Below, in pieces: positions 21,656 to 26,351 of a stretch of 64,000 nucleotides of DNA (position 1 is the stretch's first letter; each line of letters starts with the position of its first letter). Location: contig QAYZ01000016.1 in assembly GCA_003054655.1 (NCBI GenBank), forward strand, positions 1,116,001-1,180,000, read 5' to 3'. Position numbers and translations under genes: made by a program. Under the pieces are notes generated by a model, which did not search any database, was not told the origin of the DNA, and worked only from the letters and a program-made list of their open reading frames with translations. This DNA is from Spartobacteria bacterium LR76. GTDB lineage: Bacteria; Verrucomicrobiota; Verrucomicrobiia; Chthoniobacterales; Terrimicrobiaceae.

Positions 21656-22876
21656 TCAAGCGTTTTGCCCCAAAGCAGTTTCCTCCGGACGTTCGCGCCG
21701 CATCTCCAGAGCGACCGCCGCGATGGTCGCCACGGCGAGAAAGCCCGCAGCCACGGCGAACGGGAGCGCGGCATACGGCATCCTGTGTCCAGCCTCGGAT
21801 ATCCCGAGCAGCCCGCCTGCCGTCAGCGGCCCGGCAAAGCGCGCCAGGCTGCCGGCGGATTGCACGACTCCCAACGCCCTGCCCTGCCATTCCGCCGAGG
21901 CGCTGCGAGACGCCAGCGCAGAAAGCGTCGGCATGAGCAGACTGTTGCCGATGCCGACAAGAGCCGAGGCTCCGAGCATCACGCCGAACGTGCCGGCGAA
22001 TGCCAGGACGACCAGCCCGACGAACACAAGAAAACTCCCCGCGACAGCGAGCACGCCCTCCCCAAAACGTTTTACCAGGCGACCGATGAGCCCTCCCTGG
22101 ATGACAACGCCCAGGACGCCGATTCCCGCGAGAATGTAGCCGGTGTGGAGGGCATCAAGGCCGAAGCGATGCTTCAGGTAGAGCGCGAAGAGCGCCGTCA
22201 TCATCGAAAACCCGGCGATCACCAGGAAATAGCACACGAGACTGGCGACATACTGCTGCACTCGCACGTGCTGGAAAAGATCCGGAAAAATGCGCTTCGC
22301 CTCCGGAGCGGCGGCCCCGGCTTTGCGGGACTCCGGCAGGAAAAAAACGATGAAGAGGAAATTCACTGCGGCGAGTCCGGCTGCGATGAACATGGGAGCG
22401 GAGTAACTGAACTTCACCCCGGCCCATCCGCCCAAAGCAGGGCCAAAAACGAAGCCAAGTCCGAACGCCGCTCCGAGGAGGCCCATGGCTTTCGCTCGGT
22501 TCTCCGGCGACGAAATATCCGCCAGATACGCCTGGGCCGCGCCGATGTTGGCTCCGGCAATTCCGTCGATCAACCGGGCCACAAACAGCATGAGAACCGA
22601 TCCAGCCATGCCCATGAGCAAATATCCCACGATCGTTCCGATGACACCCAGCAACAGGACAGGCTTGCGTCCGATGCGGTCCGACACCTTGCCCCAGATG
22701 GGAGCAAAAAAGAACTGGGCCAGGGAAAAGATCCCGACCAGCCAGCCGATCTGCCACGGCGTGGCCCCGAAGTGCTCGGCGTAGAGAGGCAATACCGGAA
22801 TGACAATCCCGAAGCCGAGAATGTCGATAAAAACGGTAAAAAAGATCGCGAGGTATTGCAGCGGACGTCTGTCCAT
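21656..22876 (-). CDS. MFS multidrug/tetracycline-type efflux transporter
   Basis: A 406-residue, 12-TM major facilitator protein of the DHA1 drug:proton antiporter type. The N terminus resembles TetA-like proteins: DILGFGIVIPVLPLYAEHFG, then GWLVGIFSLAQFFFAPIWG and the loop 2-3 motif GKVSDRIGRKPVLL. The D..GFG element in TM1 and the duplicated motif in the second half (VKRFGEGVLAVAGS) fit this group. The substrate cannot be told from sequence. It ends at a good terminator and is divergent from the transporter-thioesterase fusion gene. Confidence 0.85.
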   Translation of the reverse strand: MDRRPLQYLAIFFTVFIDILGFGIVIPVLPLYAEHFGATPWQIGWLVGIFSLAQFFFAPIWGKVSDRIGRKPVLLLGVIGTIVGYLLMGMAGSVLMLFVARLIDGIAGANIGAAQAYLADISSPENRAKAMGLLGAAFGLGFVFGPALGGWAGVKFSYSAPMFIAAGLAAVNFLFIVFFLPESRKAGAAAPEAKRIFPDLFQHVRVQQYVASLVCYFLVIAGFSMMTALFALYLKHRFGLDALHTGYILAGIGVLGVVIQGGLIGRLVKRFGEGVLAVAGSFLVFVGLVVLAFAGTFGVMLGASALVGIGNSLLMPTLSALASRSASAEWQGRALGVVQSAGSLARFAGPLTAGGLLGISEAGHRMPYAALPFAVAAGFLAVATIAAVALEMRRERPEETALGQNA

Positions 22877-23001: not shown

Positions 23002-24855
23002 ATGGCCTCTTCCCCGAATCCGACTCCGACCCGCTGGTTTCCAACTCTCCTCTGGGGCAACTCCGTGGCGCTCTCCTGGATGTGGGGCCTCGGGCTGTTT
23101 TTCTCCGTCCAGTTTTCCACCCAGTTTGGACTCTTTGGCCTGCTGATTTTTGCCATCACCAACGGCCTCGGGCTGCTGTGTTTTGGCCTCGTTACCCACC
23201 ATATCGCACGTCGTGAGCAGGGATCGGAATCCCTCGCGCGCTTCTTTACGACGTGGTCCCGGCCCTTCCGGCTGGTCTTTTTCCTGTACCAGCTCCTGGC
23301 GATTACGCTGACGATCTTCGCCTTCATCCGCTACGGATGGCTCTCGCTCGGGATGCAGCCCTGGCTGCTTTATCTCCCCCTCACCCTTCTGATCGTGCTG
23401 GCGGCGGCGATCCTGTTTGGCGAGGAGTTTGATATCAAGAGGATCAAGTACAGCCACGGCGTGCTGGGTCTCATCCTCGCCGCGGCGGTCGCCGTGCTGA
23501 TCATTAACGCGATCCAATCGGGACCGGCCACCGCCCAGGGCCAGCCGAAGATGCTCGCTCCCGACTGGGATTTCTGGGGCTACGTCATTCCGATCATCAT
23601 CGGCTTCCTCGTCGGCCCCTGGCTCGATCTCCAGCAATGGCAGCGCGCCATCCAGATGCATCGCGAGCGTGTTTCGATCGCCGCTGCATATTGGGTGGGG
23701 TCGATCCAGTTTACCCTGATGCTGATCTTCCATGGCACGATGACCCTCTGGGCGCTGGGCCATGGTGCCGGCCAGTATCTGCGGCAGGGCATCGGGAACT
23801 ACATGTACGGCCATGAGACGCTGGTGCTTCAGTTTTTTGAGCATGCCTCGCCGTGGGTCTTCGGTGCCTACGCGGTGTGGATCTGCGTGTGCGTCCTCAC
23901 GACGCTGGACAGCGGGTACATCTCTCTGCGCTGGTTCCTGCAGGACAATGCCGCCCTGTCGAACAACCCGCTCTTTGCCCTGATCCCGAAGCGGCTCATC
24001 ACCTCGCCCATACCGATCTTCATCTTTGCGGGTGTGATCGCCCTCATTGCGGCCGTGCTCAGGCTGGAGCTGGAGTACTTCATGATCTTCTACGCGACGT
24101 TCTTCGTCGGGTACTCCGTGCTCTCGATCGCCCGCTGTTACGTCATCACCCCGGCCAACGCCATTCCTCAGGTGAAGATGTTCTGCATTGGCAGCCTGGC
24201 CGTGGTGATTTTTGCCTACGGGTATTTTCTGCGCCTCCCGCTCTTTCAGATCATCGGTTCACTCCTGCCTCTGGCCTATGTCGTGTGGCTGCTGGTGAAG
24301 CCCGGTTCGCCTCAGGAGTTTGTCAGCGGCTCGGAGGAGCTTGAGGCTCCCTCCCAGGATATCGGCCCGGCCACAGCGCCGACGGTGGTTTCCACAGCCC
24401 CGGCGGGAGCCAGCGCTCCCATGGGAGGCCATCCGGTCGGCGGACATTTCGAGGGCAAGTGGTTCATTCACTCCTTCGTCGCGACCTATGCGGATACGAA
24501 CTCGGTGGGCAACGTGTACTTCGGCATGTACGCGATGTGGGTGGGCAAGACGCGCGAGCTGTTCTTCAACCAGGTCATGCCAAAGTTTGACCTGAAGAAC
24601 ACGCCGTTCTACATCCTCACCCGTTCGTTCGAGCATAAGTTCGTACGCGAAACGCGCGAGTTTGAGACGGTGAGCGTGCGCATTCGCATTGCGAGCTACA
24701 ATCGCAAGTTCGTCATTCTCGAGCACGAGATTTACGACTCCGCCCAGAAGCTTCTCGGGCATGGCAAGCAGTCGCTGCTTTTCGTCGCCTCGACCGATTA
24801 CAAGCTGATCGACCTCCCGGCCGAAGTGACCGCGGCCTTCATGGTCTACACCTAG
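23002..24855 (+). CDS. SSS-like membrane transporter fused to a CalE7/DynE7-type hotdog thioesterase domain
   Basis: A 617-residue two-part protein. Residues ~12-430 have about twelve membrane segments. DLQQWQ at 209-214 and TTLDSG at 300-305 resemble elements of sodium:solute symporters (the second matches the Na-site region of SSS TM8), so an LeuT/APC-fold transporter is inferred. A Pro/Ala/Thr linker (432-485) leads to a ~130-residue cytosolic domain: TYADTNSVGNVYFGMYAMW (495-513), KTRELFF and ETVSVRIRI. This is the pattern of hotdog thioesterases of the enediyne type, where TN replaces the catalytic TD of 4HBT/YbgC enzymes. It starts an operon, two bases before the next gene. The ATG at 23002 is chosen over a TTG six bases earlier. 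Substrate unknown. Confidence 0.7.
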   Translation: MASSPNPTPTRWFPTLLWGNSVALSWMWGLGLFFSVQFSTQFGLFGLLIFAITNGLGLLCFGLVTHHIARREQGSESLARFFTTWSRPFRLVFFLYQLLAITLTIFAFIRYGWLSLGMQPWLLYLPLTLLIVLAAAILFGEEFDIKRIKYSHGVLGLILAAAVAVLIINAIQSGPATAQGQPKMLAPDWDFWGYVIPIIIGFLVGPWLDLQQWQRAIQMHRERVSIAAAYWVGSIQFTLMLIFHGTMTLWALGHGAGQYLRQGIGNYMYGHETLVLQFFEHASPWVFGAYAVWICVCVLTTLDSGYISLRWFLQDNAALSNNPLFALIPKRLITSPIPIFIFAGVIALIAAVLRLELEYFMIFYATFFVGYSVLSIARCYVITPANAIPQVKMFCIGSLAVVIFAYGYFLRLPLFQIIGSLLPLAYVVWLLVKPGSPQEFVSGSEELEAPSQDIGPATAPTVVSTAPAGASAPMGGHPVGGHFEGKWFIHSFVATYADTNSVGNVYFGMYAMWVGKTRELFFNQVMPKFDLKNTPFYILTRSFEHKFVRETREFETVSVRIRIASYNRKFVILEHEIYDSAQKLLGHGKQSLLFVASTDYKLIDLPAEVTAAFMVYT

Positions 24856-24857
24856 GC

Positions 24858-26351
24858 ATGAAGCACATCCGACTACTGGCCGGGGCTGGCGTGATGGTCG
24901 TTCTGGCCGGCTGCCAGCCGCCCAGCACCCAGCCCGTCCTGCCTGCGGAGACACCCTCTCCGCCCCCTGCGGTCACACCAGTAGTCGCCACATCGACACC
25001 GTCACCCACTCCGCTTCCCGTACCTGCGCTGCCCCGCAAGCCGGTGGAGCTGGGGAGGATGTTCAACGGCATCACCTTCCAGACCAAATTTGCCACTCCC
25101 GCCAGCGACGAACCGGCCTCGGTCGAGCGCATACAGGACAACGCCTACGAAGTGCAGGTCACCTTCACTGCCAGGCTGCCTCGGGCCAGCAGGAGCCTCG
25201 AGGATCTGGCAAAGAATGATCCCAAGCTCCCGCATGTCCTGAACCAGATGCCGTCTCTGGTCGAGAATGCCAAGGTCTCCCCGTTCTTCGAAAAACTCTA
25301 CAGCAACAAGATCGAGTCGATCCGCAGCCAGCTCTTCCAGTTGGACGAGGTGCTCTCGCGCCACAACTTCTACGACTGCGAAACCATACTGGAGTTCACG
25401 TCGCCCGATACCGGTCGCAAGGCCCTGCTTCTCATTGGAGACATGGACGTCAATGTCGACGGCACCGATGGCGATCGCAACGTCCAGATCGATGACTCCG
25501 GGCGCTTCTTCCAGCCTCAAACAAGCTATCGCTGGAAGCGCACCACGGATCGCGTCAATCCGCTCCTGCCCCGCTATCAGCAAAAGCTGGCGGATTTGAA
25601 GCGCGAGTATGCGGTGCCCGGCCTCACCGCAGCCCGCAACAAGGACCTCCAGCAGGCCATCGACCAGACAACGCGCACGATCAACGATCTCAAGACCTAC
25701 AGCTTTCTGATCTCCTCCACCGACCCGTCGATCGTGATCCCGACCTTCATGATCAACGACAAGGAGAACCCCTTCGCGCCCAAGGTCGGAGATTACGCTG
25801 CCGTGATCTACAACGGCGTGGTCTATCCCGCCATCGTTGGAGATGCGGGTCCATCCGCCAAGATCGGCGAAGCGTCAATCCGTCTGGCCCGGGAGATCAA
25901 TCCCAAGGCCTCCTCCATCGCGCGCCCCGTCAGCAATATCAAGGTGGCCTACCTCGTATTCCCGGGAACGGCTGATCCGGCCACACAACCGAACCTCGCG
26001 GACTGGCGGGCGAAATGCAAAGCCTACCTGGACGAGTTGGGAGGCACGGCTCCCGAGCTTTTCACCTGGACCGACATCGTGCCGCCATGGCCGACGCCCA
26101 CCCCGACTCCGACACCGGAACCTTCTCCCAGCGCCTCCCCAAGCTCGTCGCCCGAGGGGTCCCCGGCGGCGGAGGCATCACCGGCAGCCACGGTAAATCC
26201 GAATTTCATCATCGAAACTCCCCAGCCCTCGGCAACGCCAGCGCCGTCCGCCTCTCCCTCCCCGGCGGCATCCCCCAGCCCGACCCCGACAGCTCCGCAG
26301 CCCGCCGTCATCACCCCCGCCGACGCCCCGGCGGCTCCGTCCAACCCGTGA
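24858..26351 (+). CDS. Lipoprotein with GH75 chitosanase-like domain and Pro/Ser/Thr-rich tail
   Basis: A 497-residue lipoprotein (lipobox LAGC, Cys19) with a Pro/Thr linker at 20-60. The middle region (about 65-400) looks like glycoside hydrolase family 75: GDMDVNVDGTDGD at 194-206, FFQPQTSYRW just after, FMINDKENPF, VGDYAAVIYNGVVYPAIVGD and GPSAKIGEAS. GH75 enzymes cleave chitosan. I cannot assign both catalytic acids with confidence, so it may be an inactive or re-purposed member. The last ~95 residues are almost only Pro, Thr, Ser, Ala and Glu. It follows the fusion gene by two bases and its TGA overlaps the next ATG by one base. Confidence 0.65.
   Translation: MKHIRLLAGAGVMVVLAGCQPPSTQPVLPAETPSPPPAVTPVVATSTPSPTPLPVPALPRKPVELGRMFNGITFQTKFATPASDEPASVERIQDNAYEVQVTFTARLPRASRSLEDLAKNDPKLPHVLNQMPSLVENAKVSPFFEKLYSNKIESIRSQLFQLDEVLSRHNFYDCETILEFTSPDTGRKALLLIGDMDVNVDGTDGDRNVQIDDSGRFFQPQTSYRWKRTTDRVNPLLPRYQQKLADLKREYAVPGLTAARNKDLQQAIDQTTRTINDLKTYSFLISSTDPSIVIPTFMINDKENPFAPKVGDYAAVIYNGVVYPAIVGDAGPSAKIGEASIRLAREINPKASSIARPVSNIKVAYLVFPGTADPATQPNLADWRAKCKAYLDELGGTAPELFTWTDIVPPWPTPTPTPTPEPSPSASPSSSPEGSPAAEASPAATVNPNFIIETPQPSATPAPSASPSPAASPSPTPTAPQPAVITPADAPAAPSNP

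What the first reader, a model, noticed from the sequence alone, without database searches (positions are those of the whole stretch)
23002..24855. Membrane transporter fused to an enediyne-type thioesterase domain
Seen: about twelve membrane segments with SSS-like elements (DLQQWQ, TTLDSG), then a linker and a hotdog domain with TYADTNSVGNVYF, KTRELFF and VSVRIRI. Known: CalE7/DynE7/SgcE10-type thioesterases carry TN...GNVYF...RExF and lack the catalytic Asp of 4HBT enzymes; they release polyene chains from enediyne PKSs. Inferred: a transporter whose cytosolic end may hydrolyse or bind a thioester, for example coupling uptake or sensing to acyl-CoA/ACP. No PKS is nearby, so the domain has another job.
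Basis: partly seen in the sequence, partly recalled or inferred. Interest (0 to 1): 0.75.

Follow-up and report, generated by a model that had tools for sequence, protein, structure and literature searches.

The report
Membrane transporter fused to a thioesterase
A bacterial gene makes one protein that joins a sodium-symporter-like membrane carrier to an enzyme domain of the kind that cuts acyl chains off their carrier; the same joined protein is kept in many Verrucomicrobiota and is also present in Methylorubrum extorquens AM1, so the pairing is real and probably useful, but what it moves or cuts is unknown.

Summary
One intact 617-codon ORF (23002-24855, +) encodes a 12-helix membrane domain, a disordered linker (about 441-477) and a cytosolic hotdog domain (about 482-614). 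The fusion is no sequencing error: full-length relatives occur in about half of 97 related genomes and in 80 listed contigs, nearly all Verrucomicrobiota (48-96% identity), and in Methylorubrum extorquens AM1 (31%). Both halves are under strong purifying selection; the linker much less. The membrane half misses Pfam's SSF model but has the SSS fold (DUR3 Z 31, CHT1 28.7) and keeps the Ser/Thr pair of the SSS Na2 site. The hotdog half is closest in sequence to CalE7/DynE7/EspE7/SgcE10, with the Asn and Arg signature invariant in 39 of 39. It is not an enediyne-pathway enzyme: no PKS lies in the window and type I PKS does not co-occur with the fusion. Best explanation: a divergent Na+-symporter-like carrier with a built-in, probably active acyl-thioesterase. 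Transport, hydrolysis and their coupling are inferred. I found no published description of the architecture. In Kiritimatiellales-like genomes a homologous stand-alone membrane protein always follows a ~200-aa protein of unknown fold; whether that is a split version is open.

The parts
23002..24855 (+). whole gene: SSS-like membrane domain + linker + hotdog thioesterase domain, 617 aa
   Evidence: full-length relatives
23032..24306 (+). SSS-like (LeuT-fold) membrane domain, residues 11-435, about 12 TM helices, lacking the SSS N-terminal TM0
   Evidence: VIA-align DUR3 Z 31.1, CHT1 28.7, SGLT1 25.8; hhalign vs SSS proteins P 95.8%, E 7.8e-9
23899..23916 (+). TM8 motif TTLDSG, residues 300-305; T300/T301 align with the SSS Na2-site Ser pair
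   Evidence: T/S300 in 39/39, T301, D303, S304 in 39/39; alignment to SSS proteins
24322..24432 (+). disordered, fast-evolving linker, residues 441-477
   Evidence: pLDDT below 50; dN/dS 0.17 (residues 436-480) vs 0.01-0.02 in the domains
24442..24852 (+). hotdog thioesterase domain, residues 481-617
   Evidence: Pfam 4HBT_2 E 2.9e-10; PDB EspE7/DynE7/CalE7; model pLDDT 88.2, CalE7 Z 17.4
24496..24558 (+). active-site signature T499-N500-S-V-G503-N504 ... R518-E519
   Evidence: invariant in 39 of 39 relatives and in M. extorquens AM1
24858..26351 (+). adjacent gene, GH75-like lipoprotein, 2 bp downstream; likely co-transcribed but a neighbour in only part of the relatives
   Evidence: PF07335 E 1.1e-12; directly downstream in 14 of 73 loci scored

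Best explanation
The protein is a divergent relative of solute:sodium symporters (SSS, TC 2.A.21) that carries on its cytosolic C-terminus, by a flexible linker, a hotdog acyl-thioesterase of the CalE7/YbgC type. Shown by sequence: both domains, their fusion in many genomes, purifying selection on both, conserved signature residues in both. Inferred: the membrane half moves a small solute with Na+, and the tethered domain hydrolyses an acyl-CoA or acyl-carrier-protein thioester at the membrane, so that formation or removal of the free acid (or of CoA) is tied in space to transport. The most likely version is that the two halves act on the same or consecutive metabolites; the direction (import of an acid, or release of an acid for export) cannot be told.
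For: Fusion fixed: about half of 97 relatives, one copy each apart from split contigs; 80 contigs at 48-96% identity; divergent member G410; M. extorquens AM1, 99% of the query at 31% identity, E 2e-62, hotdog domain 56% identical. Membrane half: SSS fold, homology to SSS proteins, Na2 hydroxyl pair T/S300-T301 kept in 39/39 and in AM1. Hotdog half: with the AM1 domain independently choosing DynE7/CalE7/SgcE10 first. N500, N504, R518, E519 invariant, which argues for catalysis rather than a dead fold. Selection: dN/dS 0.019 (membrane) and 0.011 (hotdog) against 0.17 (linker) between the window gene and L021. Identities of the two halves correlate at r 0.86, consistent with inheritance as a unit. 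Topology puts the hotdog in the cytosol, where acyl-CoA and ACP are. Precedent for transport tied to thioesterase activity: ABCD1 (PMC7838297).
Against: No activity has been measured. Pfam SSF and every NCBIfam transporter model miss the membrane half, and it lacks TM0, so it may have lost transport. No neighbour is conserved across all lineages, so nothing names a substrate. The correlation of the two halves would also arise from shared ancestry alone. The unfused Kiritimatiellales-like homologue sits beside a protein that could not be shown to be a hotdog.
Confidence: 0.5

Rival explanations
1. Sensor model: the SSS-like domain no longer transports in bulk but senses a solute and controls the thioesterase, as the SSS domain sits on a kinase in CbrA-type proteins.
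For: SSS domains fused to signalling output domains are established (PMC7918813); divergence from Pfam SSF and loss of TM0.
Against: No STAC, PAS or kinase domain; the Na2 hydroxyls and TM8 motif are strictly kept, as expected of a working symporter; in CbrA the SSS domain does transport histidine (PMC7918813).
Confidence: 0.2
2. Gate model: the hotdog domain binds an acyl thioester without needing to cut it and switches the carrier on or off with the acyl-CoA/ACP pool.
For: Flexible tether to a conserved domain; ligand-binding hotdogs exist (general knowledge: FapR).
Against: All signature residues of the active enediyne thioesterases are invariant, more than a pure binding role needs.
Confidence: 0.17
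3. Membrane-anchored product-release thioesterase for a polyketide or polyunsaturated chain, as in enediyne pathways.
For: Closest characterised relatives are enediyne thioesterases; the genome holds one type I reducing PKS on another contig.
Against: No PKS in the window; type I PKS dehydratase in 13 of 50 carriers and 13 of 47 non-carriers, odds ratio 0.92, p 1.
Confidence: 0.04
4. Two separate genes joined by a sequencing or assembly error.
For: None found.
Against: Full-length fusions in many independent assemblies and in a second phylum.
Confidence: 0.005

Closest known systems
Solute:sodium symporters (SSS, TC 2.A.21), nearest by fold DUR3 and CHT1
   Same: LeuT fold over residues 11-445 (Z 31.1 and 28.7); TM8 Ser/Thr pair; profile homology
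   Different: about 10% identity to the solved ones, no Pfam SSF hit, TM0 missing, C-terminal enzyme domain
Enediyne hotdog thioesterases CalE7, DynE7, SgcE10, EspE7
   Same: closest sequences in the PDB, same fold, Asn in place of the 4HBT-type Asp, conserved Arg that is R35 in EspE7 (9ccr)
   Different: fused to a membrane carrier, no PKS partner, 21-29% identity
SSS-STAC histidine kinases (CbrA, CrbS, MxtR)
   Same: SSS-like domain with a cytosolic C-terminal output domain (PMC7918813)
   Different: output is a kinase with STAC and PAS there, a hotdog enzyme here
Peroxisomal ABC transporters ABCD1 and Comatose
   Same: transport and acyl-CoA thioesterase activity in one protein (PMC7838297)
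   Different: ABC fold; thioesterase activity intrinsic to the transporter, not a hotdog domain
YbgC/FadM acyl-CoA thioesterases
   Same: same fold, tied Z
   Different: far below NCBIfam cut-offs; YbgC has Asp where this has Asn500 (YbgC residue from general knowledge)

Membership tests
SSS (TC 2.A.21) | LeuT fold closest to SSS structures | tested here: met
   top rows are DUR3, CHT1, SGLT1, SiaT, then NIS among others
SSS (TC 2.A.21) | sequence homology to SSS proteins | tested here: met
   hhalign P 95.8%, E 7.8e-9 over 369 columns; 28% identity hit to an SSF-positive protein in G050
SSS (TC 2.A.21) | Pfam SSF (PF00474) above gathering score | tested here: not met
   no SSF hit at E up to 1
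SSS (TC 2.A.21) | Na2-site Ser/Thr pair in TM8 | tested here: met
   T/S300 and T301 in 39/39; residue mapping from the alignment and established SSS structures
SSS (TC 2.A.21) | N-terminal TM0 (13 or more TMs) | tested here: not met
   model starts at canonical TM1; hence called SSS-like, not filed as an SSS member
SSS (TC 2.A.21) | Na+-coupled transport | not testable with these tools
   needs an assay
Enediyne (CalE7-type) thioesterases | hotdog fold | tested here: met
   CalE7 Z 17.4, rmsd 1.9 over 129 residues
Enediyne (CalE7-type) thioesterases | Asn instead of catalytic Asp, plus conserved Arg | tested here: met
   N500 and R518 in 39/39; alignment to EspE7 and CalE7
Enediyne (CalE7-type) thioesterases | encoded with an enediyne PKS | tested here: not met
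   no ketoacyl synthase in the window; no co-occurrence with type I PKS
Enediyne (CalE7-type) thioesterases | releases polyene from ACP | not testable with these tools
   needs an assay
YbgC/FadM thioesterases | NCBIfam TIGR00051/TIGR02799 above cut-off | tested here: not met
   24.4 vs 68.7 and 17.1 vs 141.35 bits
SSS-STAC sensor kinases | STAC and kinase domains after the SSS domain | tested here: not met
   Pfam finds only 4HBT-type domains

The most novel reading that the evidence does not exclude
A new class of transporter-enzyme in which a Na+-symporter fold and a CoA or carrier-protein thioesterase form one machine, so that cleavage of an acyl thioester is mechanically or kinetically coupled to solute movement across the inner membrane; with a possible split two-gene counterpart in Kiritimatiellales-like bacteria, if the ~200-aa partner there proves to be a hotdog enzyme, which profile comparison did not show.
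Probability: 0.25. Interest if true: 0.85.

Novelty: new variant of a known kind. Interest (0 to 1): 0.6.

Why it matters
Secondary carriers of the SSS fold were known to be fused to signalling domains, not, as far as I could find, to a thioesterase. If the halves are coupled, it would be a bacterial route that links acyl-CoA or acyl-ACP hydrolysis to Na+-driven transport, comparable in logic to ABCD1 but built from unrelated parts. The presence of a full-length relative in Methylorubrum extorquens AM1, a well-studied laboratory strain, makes it directly testable.

Tried and rejected
Sequencing-error fusion: rejected. Enediyne or other PKS partner: rejected. Conserved operon partner: none across lineages; GH75 lipoprotein, IspH, PpiD/SurA-like and CCA-adding enzyme neighbours are lineage-specific (names of the last three from reading the sequences, not from a family search). 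Direct PDB hits for the membrane half by sequence profile alone: none with A3, DUR3 at E 0.04 with A1; its homology rests. The idea that the ~200-aa Kiritimatiellales-like partner is a DUF4442/YiiD-type hotdog: suggested to me by its motif pattern, but Pfam gives nothing at E up to 10, the PDB nothing, and hhalign against hotdog proteins is at the level of reversed or shuffled controls; left open. dN/dS for L003 came out meaningless because of a strand or frame mistake of mine and is not used. The whole-collection scan used exact peptide patterns and listed only the best 80 of 129, so rarer relatives in other phyla may be missed. The two titles outside Verrucomicrobiota (Paceibacterota, Blastochloris) are probably mis-binned; not tested. 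A search around Methylobacteriaceae genomes was not possible.

Full report
What is there. Window 23002-24855 (+) is one open frame of 617 aa. Pfam finds a thioesterase-like domain at the C-terminus (4HBT_2, E 8.1e-9 for the whole protein, 2.9e-10 for the domain alone) and nothing for residues 1-433. NCBIfam gives only sub-threshold thioesterase matches. The genome is about 4.7 Mb; the window is contig 11, 1116001-1180000. Relatives place it in the Verrucomicrobiota, near Chthoniobacter.

The fusion is real. Matches occur in 51 of 97 related genomes, one of them only a weak SSS-type match and a few cut by contig ends, and in 80 listed contigs with 48-96% identity, from Chthoniobacterales, subdivision 6, Akkermansiaceae, Luteolibacter and Prosthecobacter. 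In a sparse sample of the phylum, 10 of 387 genomes carry it (a divergent one, G410, is read out). A protein search of plasmids found a full-length relative on the megaplasmid of Methylorubrum extorquens AM1, an alphaproteobacterium: 99% of the query, 31% identity, E 2e-62; its hotdog domain is 56% identical to the window's and independently matches DynE7 and CalE7 best in the PDB. So the architecture is not confined to one phylum. The plasmid table used here lists no genes around it and is known to be incomplete.

Membrane half. AF2 with 39 aligned relatives gives pLDDT 82.6 and about twelve helices. Second-look structural alignment ranks DUR3 (Z 31.1, 402 residues), CHT1 (28.7), SGLT1 (25.8) and SiaT (24.9) first. 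Profile comparison with six SSS proteins gives 95.8% probability, E 7.8e-9. T300 (T or S) and T301 fall on the Ser pair of the Na2 site of SSS carriers (mapping plus established knowledge of vSGLT) and are kept in 39/39 and in AM1. The N-terminal TM0 of SSS proteins is missing. I therefore call it SSS-like rather than a member. Positive charges are mostly on the loops predicted cytosolic (net charge positive on the inner loops and about zero or negative on most outer ones; the loop 7-8 also carries K/R but is net negative), which puts the C-terminus in the cytosol.

Hotdog half. Sequence search ranks EspE7 (5vpj, 9ccr), CalE7, DynE7 and SgcE10 first, well ahead of YbgC-type proteins. The separate model (pLDDT 88.2) matches CalE7 at Z 17.4 and YbgC at 17.3, a tie. 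Where YbgC and 4HBT have the catalytic Asp (general knowledge), this family has Asn500, and the Arg mutated in EspE7 R35A corresponds to R518; both are invariant. I could not read the CalE7 mechanism paper, so the role of these residues rests on general knowledge and on the title of entry 9ccr.

Selection. Between the window gene and L021, dN/dS is 0.019 for the membrane half, 0.166 for the linker and 0.011 for the hotdog. Both domains are constrained; the tether much less. Identities of the two halves across 39 proteins correlate at 0.86.

Context. No neighbour is shared by all lineages. In part of the Chthoniobacterales a GH75-like lipoprotein follows directly (2 bp here), 14 of 73 scored loci. 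The genome has one large reducing PKS elsewhere, but type I PKS dehydratase domains are as common without the fusion as with it (13/47 and 13/50, p 1). The hotdog therefore does not serve such a PKS in general.

A possible split form. In all eight it follows a ~200-aa gene, overlapping by 4 bases in the cases inspected, and the two co-occur in a phylum sample. The 200-aa protein looked to me like a hotdog, but every test was negative or uninformative. It is recorded as a lead only.

Literature. Searches of open papers found SSS fusions to kinases (PMC7918813) and ABC transporters with thioesterase activity (PMC7838297), and no SSS-thioesterase fusion. Subscription papers and domain-architecture databases could not be searched, so 'undescribed' means not found here.

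Verdict. Observation confirmed; interpretation right in its parts, unproven in function. Most likely a bifunctional carrier-thioesterase; substrate, direction and coupling unknown.

Noticed in passing
L116:5237-7017, L117, L118:4471-6257, L119, L149-L156: Kiritimatiellales-like genomes carry a ~200-aa protein of unknown fold directly before a stand-alone homologue of the membrane half (4-base overlap in those inspected), 8 of 8 cases.
   Followed up: partly
window 24858-26351 (+): GH75 (chitosanase-like) lipoprotein with a Pro/Ser/Thr-rich tail, 2 bp downstream; recurrent neighbour in part of the relatives.
   Followed up: partly
L138:8670-15023 (G000 contig 14): 2117-aa reducing type I PKS (KS-AT-DH-ER-KR-ACP) elsewhere in the genome; a GDSL lipase, an oxidoreductase and a LuxR-type response regulator lie before it.
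   Followed up: partly
L170:17263-18811 (M. extorquens AM1 megaplasmid): LuxR/LuxI-type autoinducer receptor and synthase about 5.4 kb from the fusion homologue.
   Followed up: no
window 21656-22876 (-): MFS efflux protein resembling tetracycline exporters but far below their NCBIfam cut-offs, divergent from the finding gene; an LptF/LptG permease lies beyond it.
   Followed up: no
L115:4121-5635 (-): SSF-positive symporter, the nearest conventional SSS relative found, next to a 1191-aa caspase-like/NTPase gene (from reading the sequence, not searched).
   Followed up: no
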